51,946 nucleotides of DNA from a virus, in IMG/VR virus record IMGVR_UViG_3300008952_000073, positions 1 through 51,946 of that record. One strand, given 5' to 3'. The translations under genes were made by a program, and so were the position numbers. The notes beneath the pieces were generated by a model. That model ran no database searches. It was not told where the DNA came from and saw only the letters and a program-made list of their open reading frames with translations. Positions 7,626 through 13,903 of this stretch are shown here, in pieces. Each line of letters begins with the position of its first letter. Position 1 is the first letter of the stretch.

Positions 7626-7998
7626 TTCCACCTTTATTCAATTTGGATCGGATAAGTTCTAAGTCATCATCTGTAAGTAAAGTCAAGGCATCCTTGGCCT
7701 TCTGATCGCTATATCCGAAATATTCTTTCACTAAATCTAAATTTTTAATTTTAGAAGTTTTCAACCAAGGCGCAAAACGTTTTCTTGATCTAATACTATT
7801 TAGGAGAAAGTCAAACTGAAGTTTGGAATCTAAGTGATTGTTTACATTCATTTCATTAACAAGAAGTATCGTATCTGGATGAGCATACAATGCACGATTT
7901 ACCACCCAAGCTGGATATTTCTTCTCATAAAAAGAATCTTCCATCAGATTCTCTTTAGAGTAGTTAATTGCGTTTAGATATTCTTTTAATTGAGCCAT
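7618..7998 (-). CDS. 62: Clamp loader small subunit gp62
   Basis: 126 residues, shorter than T4 gp62 (187), as in marine relatives. It pairs with gp44 to load the gp45 clamp. Recognisable stretch: FYEKKYPAWVVNRAL, followed by MNVNNHLDSKLQFDFLLNSIRSRKRF, a segment typical of gp62. In T4, gp44 lies directly upstream; here two other genes separate them. The ATG overlaps the stop of the PLP-enzyme gene by one base at 7998, so its translation is probably coupled to that accessory gene and not to gp44. Confidence 0.93.
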   Translation of the reverse strand: MAQLKEYLNAINYSKENLMEDSFYEKKYPAWVVNRALYAHPDTILLVNEMNVNNHLDSKLQFDFLLNSIRSRKRFAPWLKTSKIKNLDLVKEYFGYSDQKAKDALTLLTDDDLELIRSKLNKGGNE

Positions 7999-8834
7999 TA
8001 TCTTATGTTATTACTATTTCCTATTACCCAAAAACAAGGATTTGTTGAGGACTGATATTTACTGGAATTTATCATCATATCATAAGCTTTTGATTCATAA
8101 ATCCTGTCTAACTCAAATCCAACATTTTTCTCATATAACTGGTGATATGGCCAATTTCCTACATGAAAATTATAATCATAATCCCATACCATACCTTCTA
8201 AATTTTTATTGATATCCGACTTCCTATCATAACCAAATGGTTGTAAACCTACAAGTCGAAAATTCTTATTATATATACGTTTTCCTTCTATGACACCAGT
8301 AAAAGTTACTGCACTTCCACATGGAACAAATAGTATATCAACATTATCTGGTATATTTTGTACTTGTTCTGAAATCTTACCTATAATAGAAGATCTATAT
8401 TGTTGGGCTGCATATCCAAACAGAACCTTAAACATAGGTCTAGTTTCTGAAAGTTTATTTAAATTTGAATATAACACATTATTAAACCCCTGAGATTCAC
8501 TCAAGACTACTAACTCAGATCCCATATCTTTACACCAAGACATGGCTTTATGTTTAAGAGCTCCTTCTATACTGGTATTACCAAATCCAATAATGGAGTT
8601 GAGTCCATATTCTTGGGCAACTCTGGATACGATTACAGCTTGTGGGGAATGAATAGATGCGGCTGTAGATATTGTAGAATCACATTCCGATTTAATATAA
8701 TCCAAATTGGTTTCAATTAAATCTCTACACTGTCTAATTTTCCCACCTGTGACAAAATCAGAACCATAGGGAGCATACAAATCATCTCTTTTGTACAATA
8801 CTCCATTATATTCTTCAACTGGTGTTAATTCCAA
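7998..8834 (-). CDS. PLP-dependent fold-type II enzyme, ACC deaminase / D-cysteine desulfhydrase-like
   Basis: 278 residues. The N-terminus LYKRDDLYAPYGSDFVTGGKIRQ matches the xKREDL...GGNKxR pattern of this family, so Lys32 would be the PLP Schiff-base lysine. The segment STAASIHSPQAVIVSRVA fills the place of the substrate-binding SNH-A region, and PCGSAVTFTGVIEGK resembles the phosphate-binding glycine loop. Known members act on small amino acids (ACC, D-cysteine). It overlaps the methyltransferase gene upstream by 10 bases and gp62 by one base, so it is translated within the clamp-loader operon. Substrate unknown; a role in nucleotide or DNA modification with its neighbour is only an inference. 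Confidence 0.75.
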   Translation of the reverse strand: MELTPVEEYNGVLYKRDDLYAPYGSDFVTGGKIRQCRDLIETNLDYIKSECDSTISTAASIHSPQAVIVSRVAQEYGLNSIIGFGNTSIEGALKHKAMSWCKDMGSELVVLSESQGFNNVLYSNLNKLSETRPMFKVLFGYAAQQYRSSIIGKISEQVQNIPDNVDILFVPCGSAVTFTGVIEGKRIYNKNFRLVGLQPFGYDRKSDINKNLEGMVWDYDYNFHVGNWPYHQLYEKNVGFELDRIYESKAYDMMINSSKYQSSTNPCFWVIGNSNNIR

Positions 8835-10177
8835 AATGACTCCAATGTTGAAGGTTTTGGGAATAATTCTACAGAAGGGTCTTTACTGAAACACCAAACA
8901 TTTTCAATAAAAGTTCGTTTCATAAAATCATCCATTTGTTTCTTATCAAATGTTCCATCTTCATTCTTGAACTTAGCTCTACCCTGAGGCCTTTGCATAA
9001 TCCTCATACCCATCTGTCCAATGAAATAAGGATTAAGTGCAACATCATTACAGAGTTCATCACTTGACCGATATCGTTTTCCCTTGATTTGTGGATCAAA
9101 AATATTGATTGCAAGAACACCCCTATCACTCAAAGATTTGAATGAGTTTCTGGATACTGGAATGTAAAAATTATCTCTCCATGATTCATACTCATTAAAC
9201 TTGGCCCATGACTGATCTTCTTGATGATCTCCACCCTTGTTGTATTCTTCAGTAGAAAAATATGGTGGGGATGTAAATGCACAATCTATATCAGAAACAG
9301 ATTCCCAAGGAAGATTCTCAGCTCCACAGCGATAGATAGTAACTTTTTTAGTGCCCCGACTTTGAAATCTATTTGCATTTATCTGAAATACAGGATCACC
9401 CTTATATCCTAATATCCGTTCATATTCCCTACATTCATCAATATATCTATTGAATGTATTAGGATTAGGATCACACCCGATATACTCTTTGGCATTACTG
9501 GCAAAAAATCCACACAAACGATCACCCCAACCACAACTGGTATCTAATACTTTAGTTGCATTAGTCATTTCATAGATACATTTTGCAACCAATGGTTTGA
9601 ACTGAGTTGCAATATATGTTCCAAGACGAAATGCAGACATATAAGAGCTTTGATCTAAATTACCACCTATAAGATTTCCATCTTTATCTTTCTTGACATC
9701 ATTGATACCTCTCCAAATAGGACCAAGACATTTCCATATATCTTTTGCAGAACCATTATTCCAAACATCAATAGGGGCCTTAAAACCATAAGATCCACAA
9801 TTGAGTCTTAGATCTTGACAAAAATAATTACTTGCAGTATTAAATTTATTAGATGCATCAATCACACCCAACCCATGAGTTGAATATGGATACTGATAGT
9901 CATCGAATTTCTCCATGACATCTGCATCTAAAATTAGGGATTTGGTATAGTTTTCTTTTTTAAGCTGTTTAAAGATATTTTCCATATCATAAACAGAAAT
10001 ATTCTTTAAAGGAAAGGGAGGCCTTTCAGTTGCAATAAAAGTGGCAAGAGTGTCCCGAAAAACCTCTTTGCCATACTCTGCATTTAAAACTTGAAAGTGA
10101 CCTTCTTGGATGATAGGAAGACCATCTGAATTTGTATGGTCTTTTAAAATTTGATATAGTTCACTTGAACTTTGCAT
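8825..10177 (-). CDS. SPPY-type amino DNA methyltransferase-like protein
   Basis: 450 residues. The C-terminal half has a Rossmann-type SAM site, VLDTSCGWGDRL (about 210-221) with CDPNP (235-239), then the catalytic TSPPYF (302-307) typical of N6-adenine/N4-cytosine methyltransferases. The first 200 residues (SNYFCQDLRLNC, LGPIWRGINDV) match nothing I recognise and could give specificity or another activity. No restriction partner is adjacent. It overlaps gp44 by 17 bases and the PLP enzyme by 10 bases, so it is co-translated with the replisome genes. It may methylate phage DNA during replication; the TSPPYF form is also compatible with other transfer reactions from SAM. Confidence 0.8.
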   Translation of the reverse strand: MQSSSELYQILKDHTNSDGLPIIQEGHFQVLNAEYGKEVFRDTLATFIATERPPFPLKNISVYDMENIFKQLKKENYTKSLILDADVMEKFDDYQYPYSTHGLGVIDASNKFNTASNYFCQDLRLNCGSYGFKAPIDVWNNGSAKDIWKCLGPIWRGINDVKKDKDGNLIGGNLDQSSYMSAFRLGTYIATQFKPLVAKCIYEMTNATKVLDTSCGWGDRLCGFFASNAKEYIGCDPNPNTFNRYIDECREYERILGYKGDPVFQINANRFQSRGTKKVTIYRCGAENLPWESVSDIDCAFTSPPYFSTEEYNKGGDHQEDQSWAKFNEYESWRDNFYIPVSRNSFKSLSDRGVLAINIFDPQIKGKRYRSSDELCNDVALNPYFIGQMGMRIMQRPQGRAKFKNEDGTFDKKQMDDFMKRTFIENVWCFSKDPSVELFPKPSTLESFWN

Positions 10178-12262: not shown

Positions 12263-12291
12263 ATTATCTCATAATAAATCGAAAAAGTCAA
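12263..12291 (-). promoter_or_regulatory. Sigma70-type promoter abutting the DUF3310-like start codon
   Basis: Minus strand TTGACT (12291-12286), 17-base spacer, GATAAT (12268-12263), with the ATG directly after it at 12262. The stop codon of the DUF262-HNH gene lies within the -35 box. RNA starting about 7 bases after the -10 would lack this ATG, so the promoter probably serves the downstream gp45 block. Confidence 0.65.
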
Positions 12292-13817
12292 GACACTTTT
12301 TCCAAAGGGGCATCTTTATATGAAAGATTTGAGTCTTTTGATTGGATTTTCAAATCAGTATTACTACCACCTTGTGATTTAGGAATAATATGGCCTCTAT
12401 GAAATCTTTCTCTCAAAATTTCCGTACCTGTTACTTTTCTTCCCTTATAATCAGTAGGATTTTCATTCCACAACTCTTCAATAGAAGGCATTGCAGATGT
12501 ATCTAGTTCAACTAAAATTTGATCTTCTATCAAAGTTGCTTTGATAGATTGAAGATACTCAGAGAATTTTCGGATTCTAGTTTCCAAATTTTGTTTACCA
12601 TATTCCTGTAAAGCCCATGGCAGATAATATGGAACCTTTTCTTTTTTTGATTTCTTAGGATCTGTAGGATGAGGAATGGCCATATAAGCTCCTGGCTCTT
12701 TTTTAAGTTTAGCATCTGCTAAAATAAATTGAGAAACAAACTCAGTCTTTTTTATGATTTTCCAATTTGGTAAATCTATATCCTTAAATTCTTTAGGATG
12801 ATCTAAGGCATACCTAAACATCACATAATTTCTAACCATCATGTGCTTATAAGATTTACTTTTAGTTACCACCATAGCAAATTCTCTTAGATATTTTTTC
12901 AAAAGAGTTACATTTTTTTCAGATACAACAAACCCATCAATACTATCAAAGTATTTAATATGACCAATATTTGAGTCTTTCTTGGGTTGAATTTTACTAT
13001 CCATCCAAATTAACATTTCAGATATAAATTTCTCATGACCATCAAAATCTAACTTATAACTAGAGCCTAATTCTAGAAAAATTCTATCTGCTAATAATCC
13101 ATCAGATTCTAATACTTCTAGAATTTTTCGGTTATGTTCAGTAAAATGTTTAGTAGCTCTTAATTTTTGCCAATCACTCCAAGCAACATTTGAATTCTTA
13201 GCTATAAGTGCAGCTGTAAAAGTTTCAATATCTCCCTTTTGGGCAAAGGCCACTGGAACATACAAATTCCTAATAAACACTTGAACATTAGTAGGAAGAT
13301 CTTTAATTTTCTTACCCGATAAAGATATCTTCTTATTAGGTGTAAAATCTGTATCAGTTATAGTTAATTTTTCCACCCCAAAAGTTATTTCATTATTTAA
13401 AAGTGGTACAATAGCCATCAATAGTCTATTTTGACCATCAATAGTATAATACTCTGTACCTCCTTTTTCATCATTTTTAACTTTATTCAGAACTTGTTTA
13501 ATATTAGTTCGTTCTACATCAGTACTTGCATCTGCAAGATTATTCTCTAAAGAACGAATTACCAATTCGATAGGAACAAACATAAAATAATCTACATCTG
13601 CATTTCCTTTCAATAAGGAATGTAAATATTCCTTAACCCTTTGGTAATCCTGTTCTTTCCAAGAATCCTCTTGAATTCTTCTATTTAAGGTTCCAGCCCT
13701 TGAACCTATTTTACTATTTGGAGTTTCTCTCGCTGGAGTACAATATTTGTGTAATTGATCTAAAGTCCACAACTCATTTGTATCCCATTTACTCGCACCA
13801 TCCACTATCAAAGTCAT
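12288..13817 (-). CDS. DUF262-HNH protein, modification-dependent nuclease candidate
   Basis: 509 residues. Near 124-133 the sequence YTIDGQNRLL matches the DGQQR motif of DUF262 (ParB/Srx-like NTP-using domain). The C-terminus, HRGHIIPKSQGGSNTD then NLSYKD, is an HNH motif (His476, Asn497, Lys501). This DUF262 plus HNH layout is that of GmrSD- and SspE-type defence nucleases, which sense DNA modification. The motif reads Asn in place of the second Gln. The gene has its own sigma70-type promoter (13848-13876), suggesting early expression. In a phage it might attack competing phage or host DNA while the phage's own DNA is protected. Function is inferred; the domain match is by eye. Confidence 0.75.
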   Translation of the reverse strand: MTLIVDGASKWDTNELWTLDQLHKYCTPARETPNSKIGSRAGTLNRRIQEDSWKEQDYQRVKEYLHSLLKGNADVDYFMFVPIELVIRSLENNLADASTDVERTNIKQVLNKVKNDEKGGTEYYTIDGQNRLLMAIVPLLNNEITFGVEKLTITDTDFTPNKKISLSGKKIKDLPTNVQVFIRNLYVPVAFAQKGDIETFTAALIAKNSNVAWSDWQKLRATKHFTEHNRKILEVLESDGLLADRIFLELGSSYKLDFDGHEKFISEMLIWMDSKIQPKKDSNIGHIKYFDSIDGFVVSEKNVTLLKKYLREFAMVVTKSKSYKHMMVRNYVMFRYALDHPKEFKDIDLPNWKIIKKTEFVSQFILADAKLKKEPGAYMAIPHPTDPKKSKKEKVPYYLPWALQEYGKQNLETRIRKFSEYLQSIKATLIEDQILVELDTSAMPSIEELWNENPTDYKGRKVTGTEILRERFHRGHIIPKSQGGSNTDLKIQSKDSNLSYKDAPLEKVS

Positions 13818-13847: not shown

Positions 13848-13876
13848 ATCTTAACATAGAAAATCTCAAATGTCAA
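13848..13876 (-). promoter_or_regulatory. Sigma70-type promoter for the DUF262-HNH gene
   Basis: Minus strand TTGACA (13876-13871), 17-base spacer, TAAGAT (13853-13848), about 30 bases before the ATG at 13817. It directly follows the Hsp20 terminator, so the gene is insulated from late transcription. Confidence 0.75.
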
Positions 13877-13879
13877 GAC

Positions 13880-13903
13880 AAAAAAGGGGGTATTTCACCC
13901 CCC
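13880..13903 (-). terminator. Rho-independent terminator after Hsp20
   Basis: Minus strand GGGGGT-GAAAT-ACCCCC followed by TTTTTT, six bases after the Hsp20 stop codon. Stem of six pairs, mostly GC. Confidence 0.9.

What the first reader, a model, noticed from the sequence alone, without database searches (positions are those of the whole stretch)
12288..13817. Phage-encoded DUF262-HNH nuclease candidate with its own early promoter
DGQNR (DUF262) plus a C-terminal HNH is the layout of modification-sensing defence nucleases (GmrSD, SspE). A phage carrying one could exclude rival phages or cut host DNA, with the methyltransferase 2 kb downstream giving self-protection.
Basis: partly seen in the sequence, partly recalled or inferred. 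Interest (0 to 1): 0.7.

Follow-up and report, generated by a model that had tools for sequence, protein, structure and literature searches.

The report
Phage-borne DUF262-HNH DNA nuclease
A marine T4-like virus of bacteria carries a two-part enzyme that looks like the DNA-cutting bacterial immunity proteins GmrSD and SspE but belongs to a separate family, which can move between related viruses and often sits beside DNA-modifying enzymes, so it may be a weapon one virus uses against another.

Summary
Its 18-sequence AlphaFold2 model (pLDDT 77) matches mainly viral DUF262/GmrSD N-terminal proteins in BFVD. The best PDB rows are SspE (residues 5-212) and, for 444-509, Cas9 HNH domains, at modest Z. 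DGQNR is invariant where covered, and GH-GG-N-Q-N is conserved. It fails membership tests for GmrSD and SspE. I found 24 related viral records; tblastn of sequenced phages and plasmids and pattern scans of the genome collection found none. In 11 of 24 a methyltransferase gene lies within about 1 kb upstream, usually with a second, exchangeable enzyme between; in 2 more it lies further off. Yet 75 of 78 methyltransferase loci (many fragments) show no such nuclease, and two 129-136 kb nuclease records lack that methyltransferase, so protection by it is not established. Window and L001 share the gene at dS 0.03 while six flanking genes have dS 0.37-0.79: recent transfer. Best reading: an NTP-gated HNH nuclease against competing DNA; homing is the main rival. 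New variant of a known kind.

The parts
12288..13817 (-). DUF262-like + HNH-like nuclease gene (509 aa), here called DHNH
   Evidence: 24 related viral records; model m365fcfa6f382
13173..13817 (-). N-terminal DUF262-like (ParB/Srx-fold) part, residues 1-215 (limits approximate)
   Evidence: VIA-align rows SspE Z 6.5 and 6.0 over model 5-212, KorB Z 4.6 over 14-217; 6 of the 8 BFVD matches at E<=0.001 are named DUF262/GmrSD N-terminal, the other 2 have no name
13425..13439 (-). DGQNR motif, residues 127-131, in the place of DGQQR
   Evidence: 15 of 15 sequences that cover it; the DGQQR arginine is needed for GTP hydrolysis in SspE (PMC13251355, passages)
13659..13688 (-). L-N-R-x-x-Q-x-x-x-W, residues 44-53 (family: L-Q-R), after G42; in the place of P-x-x-Q-R-x-F-V-W of BrxU-type DUF262
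12291..12488 (-). C-terminal HNH-like part, residues 444-509
   Evidence: Cas9 HNH rows, best Z 5.2, rmsd 3.0, 65 residues; Endonuclea_NS_2/HNH Pfam hits below cut-off in relatives
12327..12395 (-). Predicted catalytic motif G475-H476...GG-x-N486...Q492...N497
   Evidence: H476, N486, N497 in 18 of 18, Q492 in 17 of 18
13848..13876 (-). Promoter-like TTGACA-17-TAAGAT with TG before the second hexamer, upstream of DHNH
   Evidence: 8% of shuffles as good
13885..13903 (-). Terminator-like hairpin after hsp20
12263..12291 (-). Promoter-like TTGACT-17-GATAAT with TG, before the downstream DUF3310-gp45 genes
8825..10177 (-). Methyltransferase-like gene (450 aa, TSPPYF motif)
   Evidence: PF01555 E 1.3e-4, below cut-off; 78 viral loci
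7998..8834 (-). PLP-dependent enzyme-like gene next to the methyltransferase
   Evidence: PF00291 E 1e-4, below cut-off; phrog_3650 (unknown function) E 1.4e-26

Best explanation
A phage-encoded, probably NTP-gated DNA nuclease. The N-terminal DUF262-like domain, with the DGQNR motif, would bind and hydrolyse a nucleotide and recognise a DNA state. This would license the C-terminal His-Me-finger (HNH-like) domain to nick or cut DNA. Made as its own transcription unit early in infection, it would act on competing DNA, most likely that of other T4-like phages in the same cell, and perhaps that of the host. The phage's own DNA would be spared by a mark or by sequence. Adjacent, exchangeable modification enzymes would give that mark in many but not all lineages. 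Shown: the domain layout by model and motif order, conserved active-site residues, purifying selection in relatives, one recent transfer, frequent methyltransferase neighbours. Inferred: NTP use, cleavage, target, timing and self-protection.
For: Fold: SspE is the top VIA-align row (Z 6.5, rmsd 4.8, 160 aligned, residues 5-212) and SaCas9 the top row for 444-509 (Z 5.2, rmsd 3.0, 65 aligned); DndI spans 14-433 (Z 4.2, rmsd 8.6). In BFVD 6 of 8 matches at E<=0.001 are named DUF262/GmrSD N-terminal, 2 have no name. Motif order: G.LQR..Q...W, DGQNR and KN in the family stand in the order of P..QR.FVW, DGQQR and F.R.N..G of 12 BrxU-type proteins, each followed by an HNH-type motif. Neighbours: a methyltransferase gene within about 1 kb upstream, same strand, in 11 of 24 records: ten have the 450-aa family, with a GNAT-like or second methyltransferase-like gene between it and DHNH; L121 has a Dam-type enzyme (PF02086 E 6.9e-25). 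MTase, MTase2 and DHNH have similar dS in L117/L120 (0.80, 0.95, 0.75); in L116/L118 gp43, MTase and DHNH are 1.69, 2.08 and 1.51, near saturation, as if inherited together. DHNH has higher dN than all matched neighbours in L104/L107, L116/L118 and L117/L120, though not in L105/L106 or L101/L102, as conflict genes often do.
Against: No library holds a named DUF262 match: PF03235 gave 0 of 15 records at E<=10; only unnamed PHROGs hit the DGQNR region of some relatives (phrog_1583 E 9.5e-6 in L106, phrog_2598 E 1.3e-4 in L116). hhalign against 12 BrxU-type proteins gave probability 0.5% and did not align the motifs. Foldseek on PDB had nothing at E<=0.001; VIA Z under 8 can reflect a common arrangement, and BFVD TM-scores are low (0.23-0.43 on the query for those 8). 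DGQNR alone is not diagnostic: it also occurs in short phage proteins that look ParB-like by my reading (L006, L008-L010). The window protein departs from its family at three otherwise near-invariant places: N45 for Q, S209 for E, N210 for G, so this copy may be altered or degenerate. 75 of 78 methyltransferase loci show no DHNH, and 0 of 40 of their records searched whole (which held no known positive). The L107/L108 records (128,880 and 135,728 bp) hold neither this methyltransferase nor PF01555. No activity data of any kind.
Confidence: 0.44

Rival explanations
1. A free-standing homing endonuclease of T4-like phages: it cuts a conserved gene next to its own insertion point in phages that lack it and is copied in by repair, so its effect on rivals is a by-product.
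For: Sporadic, in different intergenic slots beside core replication genes: before uvsX (L116; L076 with one gene between), before a gene I read as gp32 (L110), before hsp20 or gp45 (L114, L115, window) (the names gp43, uvsX, gp41 and gp32 in relatives are my reading of the translations). T4 SegA sits at uvsX and targets it; SegG sits at gene 32 and targets it (PMC2988022, passages). Window/L001: DHNH dS 0.033, 97.4% nt, against dS 0.37-0.79 in six flanking genes, identity falling 0.97, 0.96, 0.92, 0.81 within about 300 bp past the gene, like a co-conversion tract. DHNH identity follows gp43 poorly (r 0.36, 34 pairs) compared with MTase (r 0.72, 13 pairs); L120/L121 have gp43 81% but DHNH 40%. 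Another possibly nuclease-like gene (c37: SegE GIY-YIG E 0.0067 in L048, homing-endonuclease PHROGs E 0.0013 in L060, both weak) fills the same slot in L048, L060 and L068.
Against: The passages seen name no homing enzyme with a DUF262 or ParB domain (ParB searched, ParB and DUF262). At 505-537 aa in full-length relatives it is large (size comparison recalled). In none of seven other pairs is a tract like that of window/L001 evident; three of the seven (L101/L102, L109/L111, L112/L113) cannot be judged. L001 starts inside DHNH, so the other end of the tract is unseen.
Confidence: 0.28
2. A phage nuclease for breaking down unmodified host chromosome, like T4 EndoII/EndoIV in role (recalled), with phage DNA spared by its modification.
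For: Sigma-70-like promoter and position among replication genes; modification genes often near.
Against: Sporadic: no relative in the sequenced phages searched and none in the record of the relative L024, whose slot holds other genes; a host-degradation gene would be expected to be more regular.
Confidence: 0.15
3. No longer a nuclease, or a regulator: DUF262/ParB-fold DNA binding used in phage gene control, the HNH part being structural; or the window copy alone is decaying.
For: ParB-fold proteins include regulators such as KorB (row). The window copy departs from the family at residues 45, 209 and 210.
Against: H476, N486 and N497 are the same in 18 of 18, window included, hard to explain without catalysis.
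Confidence: 0.09

Closest known systems
SspE (phosphorothioate-sensing DUF262-HNH effector)
   Same: DUF262-type N-domain by fold (Z 6.5), DGQxR arginine, C-terminal HNH
   Different: The P-x-Y-Q-R tyrosine that senses phosphorothioate (PMC13251355, passages) is L44 in 15 of 15, and the proline position is G42 in 14 of 15 (equivalence by motif, not by superposition); second Q of DGQQR is N in 15 of 15; shorter than the 771-residue SspE chain
GmrSD / BrxU (Type IV restriction)
   Same: N-terminal DUF262-like and C-terminal HNH-like parts in one chain; N-terminal motifs in the same order
   Different: No PF03235 match, no DUF1524 (D/E)HxxP motif, hhalign negative
Free-standing homing endonucleases of T4-like phages (seg, mob)
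   Same: Intergenic, sporadic, beside core genes, one recent transfer
   Different: DUF262-like domain, large size, site specificity unknown
Endonuclea_NS_2 / EssD-type and Cas9 HNH domains
   Same: RGH..GG.N..N-type motif; sub-threshold Pfam and PDB profile hits in the C-terminus
   Different: Only about the last 65-110 residues; no secretion or CRISPR context seen

Membership tests
GmrSD (Type IV, COG1479) | DUF262 domain detectable by PF03235 | tested here: not met
   0 of 15 records at E<=10, window included; control genomes rang in 10 of 14
GmrSD (Type IV, COG1479) | (I/V)DGQQR motif, DGQQR in nearly all members (PMC4619093, passages) | tested here: not met
   IDGQNR in 15 of 15: D, G, first Q and R kept, second Q is N
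GmrSD (Type IV, COG1479) | DUF1524 (PF07510) with (E/D)H(I/L/V)xPQ | tested here: not met
   No PF07510 hit in the 9 members of A3; RGHIIPK-type motif instead
GmrSD (Type IV, COG1479) | Cleaves modified-cytosine DNA | not testable with these tools
   needs protein
DUF262 / ParB-Srx fold superfamily | ParB/Srx-type N-terminal fold with DGQxR | tested here: met
   BFVD 6 of 8 at E<=0.001 named DUF262/GmrSD; SspE top VIA row; motif order. Limits: modest Z, low TM-scores, Foldseek PDB and hhalign negative
SspE | Phosphorothioate-sensing tyrosine in PxYQR | tested here: not met
   Leu in 15 of 15, equivalence by motif
SspE | Neighbouring sspABCD modification genes | not tested
   neighbours were clustered by similarity; SspA-D were not searched for
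His-Me finger (HNH) nucleases | beta-beta-alpha core with conserved His and Asn | tested here: met
   H476, N486, N497 in 18 of 18; Cas9 HNH rows for 444-509; Pfam hits below cut-off only
Free-standing homing endonuclease | Sporadic, intergenic, beside core genes | tested here: met
Free-standing homing endonuclease | Spread with co-conversion of flanks | tested here: inconclusive
   one tract in window/L001 with one visible end; not evident in seven other pairs, three of them not judgeable
Free-standing homing endonuclease | Site-specific cleavage of a cognate allele | not testable with these tools
   needs protein or crosses
Restriction-modification system | Cognate methyltransferase with the nuclease | tested here: inconclusive
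   this MTase family in 12 of 24 mostly short records; absent, with PF01555, from two records of 129-136 kb; other methyltransferase families were not searched there

The most novel reading that the evidence does not exclude
Marine T4-like phages carry a mobile exclusion cassette: a methyltransferase usually next to the DNA polymerase gene, an exchangeable second enzyme (second methyltransferase, GNAT-like or PLP-like; a Dam-type enzyme alone in one lineage) and an exchangeable NTP-gated nuclease (DUF262-HNH, or a GIY-YIG-like one). In several lineages the nuclease is held in check by a pseudoknot leader RNA. It distinguishes competing phage DNA by its lack, or its kind, of modification.
Probability: 0.22. 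Interest if true: 0.82.

Novelty: new variant of a known kind. Interest (0 to 1): 0.6.

Why it matters
DUF262-HNH enzymes are known as bacterial defences. A family of them in T4-like phages, without a named match in the profile libraries used here and often beside varied DNA-modifying enzymes, would show modification-based restriction used by viruses against viruses in the ocean. It makes testable whether phage DNA modification serves offence as well as defence. If it proves to be a homing enzyme, it would add a domain not named for that class in the passages read here.

Tried and rejected
Sequence searches that gave nothing firm for the window protein: Pfam, PHROGs, PADLOC and NCBIfam (Pfam HNH_5 E 0.046 and DUF6942 E 0.036, both below cut-off), PDB by phmmer, tblastn in 50,697 phage records (at E 10 only one 46-residue piece, E 0.8, in two records of one cyanophage) and 72,556 plasmid records, and two pattern-limited scans of genome contigs. 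Degenerate DNA patterns for HRGHIIPK and IDGQNRL found L001 again and proteins not related by tblastn.

First AlphaFold2 model (9 sequences, pLDDT 67) gave uninformative Foldseek rows; the second (18 sequences) was used. Foldseek on PDB with the second model gave nothing at E<=0.001. hhalign against BrxU-type proteins failed. Searches used nearly the same peptide pattern and gave the same 23 loci, so the repeat says nothing about saturation.

Considered and dropped: GmrSD or SspE membership (features not met); a tie to the PLP enzyme (PLP-like match in 10 loci, 9 distinct since L003 is L001's contig; DHNH only in L001); an Rfam identity for the leader RNA of relatives (at gathering only a tmRNA in L117 among 11 loci, nothing convincing at E<=10 for two leaders). 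A ParB-like nature of the alternative slot proteins in L024 and L043 was suspected from short motifs; no Pfam or PHROG support, so not claimed.

Literature: no paper on this family was noticed in the listings of searches; that says only that these term searches of the held library did not show one. Papers: passages seen of PMC4619093, PMC10952713, PMC13251355, PMC7824862, PMC2988022; abstract, outline and passages of PMC10448857; all others only as listings.

Full report
What is there. The window is a 51,946-base virus record with T4-type genes: gp45 clamp, gp44 and gp62 clamp loader, RegA, hsp20, and AAA and peptidase genes that correspond to CobS and 'peptidase' in HTVC008M. The best-ranked matches to its prohead-core protein among phage records are Pelagibacter phage HTVC008M and Methylophilales phages. 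The ORF at 12288-13817 (-) encodes 509 aa. It follows a terminator-like hairpin and has a TTGACA-17-TAAGAT promoter-like site; the downstream DUF3310-gp45 genes have another promoter-like site at its 3' end. So it looks like a one-gene insert with its own start, but the promoter match alone could be chance.

Family. Profile libraries give the window protein no match above a cut-off, and phmmer of PDB nothing. The first distant relative, L076 (33% identity), was found among 78 methyltransferase loci. Alignment-based scans then brought the total to 24 related viral records: L001, L054 (N-terminal 55 residues only), L076 and L101-L121. No relative was found in the phage and plasmid records by tblastn or in genome contigs by two pattern-limited scans (with L076 in phages). 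Ten relatives scanned against PHROGs gave weak hits of the DGQNR region to two unnamed phage families: phrog_1583 in L106 and L107 (best E 9.5e-6), phrog_2598 in L076, L105, L109 and L116 (best E 1.3e-4), and none to either in the other four.

Domains. In an 18-sequence alignment DGQNR is present in all 15 sequences that cover it, and H476, N486 and N497 in all 18. The window copy differs from the 14 others at residues 45 (N for Q), 209 (S for E) and 210 (N for G). The model (pLDDT 77.4, pTM 0.66) gives 8 BFVD matches at E<=0.001; six are named DUF262 or GmrSD N-terminal proteins of phages and giant viruses, two have no name. In the VIA-align second look the best rows are SspE (Z 6.5 and 6.0, residues 5-212), then a Cas9 with its HNH region (Z 5.2, residues 444-509), with KorB and DndI lower. 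These Z values are modest and unrelated rows reach about 5. The case rests on agreement between two libraries, both domains and the motif order, since PF03235, Foldseek on PDB and hhalign were negative. Compared with 12 BrxU-type proteins, the order QR...W, DGQ(Q/N)R, N, HNH is the same; but the second Q is N, the P-x-x-Q-R stretch is G-x-L-Q-R, and the nuclease motif is RGH-GG-N-Q-N in place of DHxxP. In SspE the pocket tyrosine of PxYQR reads phosphorothioate and the DGQQR arginine is needed for GTP hydrolysis (PMC13251355, passages). So the expected catalytic residues are kept while the sensing pocket differs. DGQNR is not specific to this family: short phage proteins that I read as ParB-like carry it too.

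Neighbourhood. Gene names gp43, uvsX, gp41 and gp32 in relatives are my reading of the translations. In several lineages the order is gp43 - methyltransferase - {GNAT-like or second methyltransferase} - DHNH - ... - gp41, with uvsX soon after DHNH in L076 and L116. Counting records: 11 of 24 have a methyltransferase gene within about 1 kb upstream (L054, L076, L101-L103, L116-L120, and a Dam-type one in L121). L001 has one 1.9 kb downstream and L114 a fragment further off. The other 11 (L104-L113, L115) show none by the searches made, though L112 and L115 have little or no upstream sequence. Several records are one lineage (L101-L103, L104-L108, L109-L111, L118/L119). In the other direction 3 of 78 methyltransferase loci show DHNH (L001, L054, L076), and 0 of 40 of the rest when their records were searched whole. 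The methyltransferase's second partner varies (second methyltransferase, GNAT-like, PLP-like) with or without DHNH. So DHNH often has a modification neighbourhood, but neither gene needs the other. Both are also known here only from uncultivated viral contigs of one broad T4-like kind, which could produce part of the association; a neutral sample of such phages was not available to me.

Slots. Just upstream of DUF3310-gp45 the content changes: DHNH in the window and L001; a methyltransferase-like fragment plus an unknown 472-aa gene in L024; another methyltransferase-like fragment in L027. Around hsp20 upstream of the clamp there are unknown genes in L037 and L043, and in HTVC008M a 2OG-oxygenase and a hypothetical gene between heat-shock gene and clamp.

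Mobility. Between window and L001 the 205 shared DHNH codons have dS 0.033 and 97.4% nucleotide identity. DUF3310, gp45, gp44, MTase, gp62 and RegA have dS 0.37, 0.79, 0.60, 0.78, 0.76 and 0.44. This is a recent transfer tract that includes DHNH and fades within about 300 bp beyond it. Identity of DHNH follows gp43 poorly (r 0.36 over 34 pairs) compared with the methyltransferase (0.72 over 13 pairs). Against constant mobility, in L117/L120, L116/L118, L104/L107 and L105/L106 DHNH dS is close to or within the range of its neighbours (the L116/L118 values are near saturation). DHNH dN exceeds that of all matched neighbours in the first three of these, not in L105/L106. L101/L102 and L109/L111 are too similar to tell, and in L112/L113 the one other matched gene aligns too poorly.

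Mechanism. The motif and fold evidence supports an NTP-responsive HNH nuclease. What it cuts is inferred. Competing phage DNA is favoured because the gene is accessory, exchanged at least once recently, in three pairs faster-changing than its neighbours, and often beside DNA-modifying genes. Homing is the main rival: T4 free-standing endonucleases sit at uvsX and gene 32 and act there (PMC2988022, passages), and homing genes are often near essential genes in phages (PMC10448857, abstract, outline and passages). Both readings share the same first test, DNA cleavage.

Known precedents. BrxU-like DUF262 proteins occur in a few phage-labelled records (7 of 50,697 at E<=0.01), and named DUF262 proteins of phages appear in BFVD, so a DUF262 gene in a phage is not itself new. 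A review suggests that HNH domains fused to phage RNA ligases might attack superinfecting phages or host DNA (PMC7824862, passages).

Side finding. In 10 of 11 relatives examined, the leader of DHNH can form an H-type pseudoknot starting 81-105 nt before the ATG, with differing but complementary arms (arms chosen by eye). L076 has complementary arms only in a different geometry, and a strict descriptor did not find it in the window gene. That descriptor found it in 7 of 14 relatives' leaders and in 27 of 365 other upstream regions, one of which is the DHNH of L119. No Rfam family matched the leaders.

Noticed in passing
Upstream of DHNH in L101, L104, L109, L112, L113, L116, L117, L118, L120, L121 (starting 81-105 nt before the start): Possible conserved H-type pseudoknot leader RNA, in some with a TTGACA-17-TATTAT-like promoter about 130 nt upstream (best in L101, L102, L117); no Rfam match; not found in the window gene.
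   Followed up: partly
window 7998-10177 and loci: The methyltransferase has exchangeable partners: PLP-like (10 loci, 9 distinct), GNAT-like (21 loci) or a second N4/N6 methyltransferase-like gene (matches in 43 loci, some weak or elsewhere). L025, L026 and L097 have a GNAT-like gene between methyltransferase and gp62 where the window has the PLP-like one. Could be a DNA hypermodification pathway.
   Followed up: partly
L048 4689-6038, L060 6132-7430, L068 from 3998: Gene c37 (449 and 432 aa; cut off in L068) in the slot after methyltransferase + GNAT-like gene, with weak SegE GIY-YIG (L048) and homing endonuclease (L060) hits.
   Followed up: partly
L024 2-685 and 850-2265: Relative of the window phage with a second SPPYF-type methyltransferase-like fragment and an unknown 472-aa gene where the window has DHNH.
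   Followed up: partly
L106, L107, L116, L109, L105, L076 (DGQNR region): Weak matches to phrog_1583 and phrog_2598, phage families of unknown function that may share the DUF262/ParB-type core.
   Followed up: no
L117 5192-5494: tmRNA (alpha or permuted type) directly downstream of DHNH in a viral contig.
   Followed up: no
window 18330-18302 (-): Perfect 12 of 12 sigma-70 consensus (TTGACA-17-TATAAT) upstream of the 829-aa peptidase-like gene.
   Followed up: no
phage records PQ492289, OR846597, MT835506, MT835483: Phage-labelled records with BrxU-like DUF262 proteins, 33-35% identity over 82-100% of BrxU.
   Followed up: no
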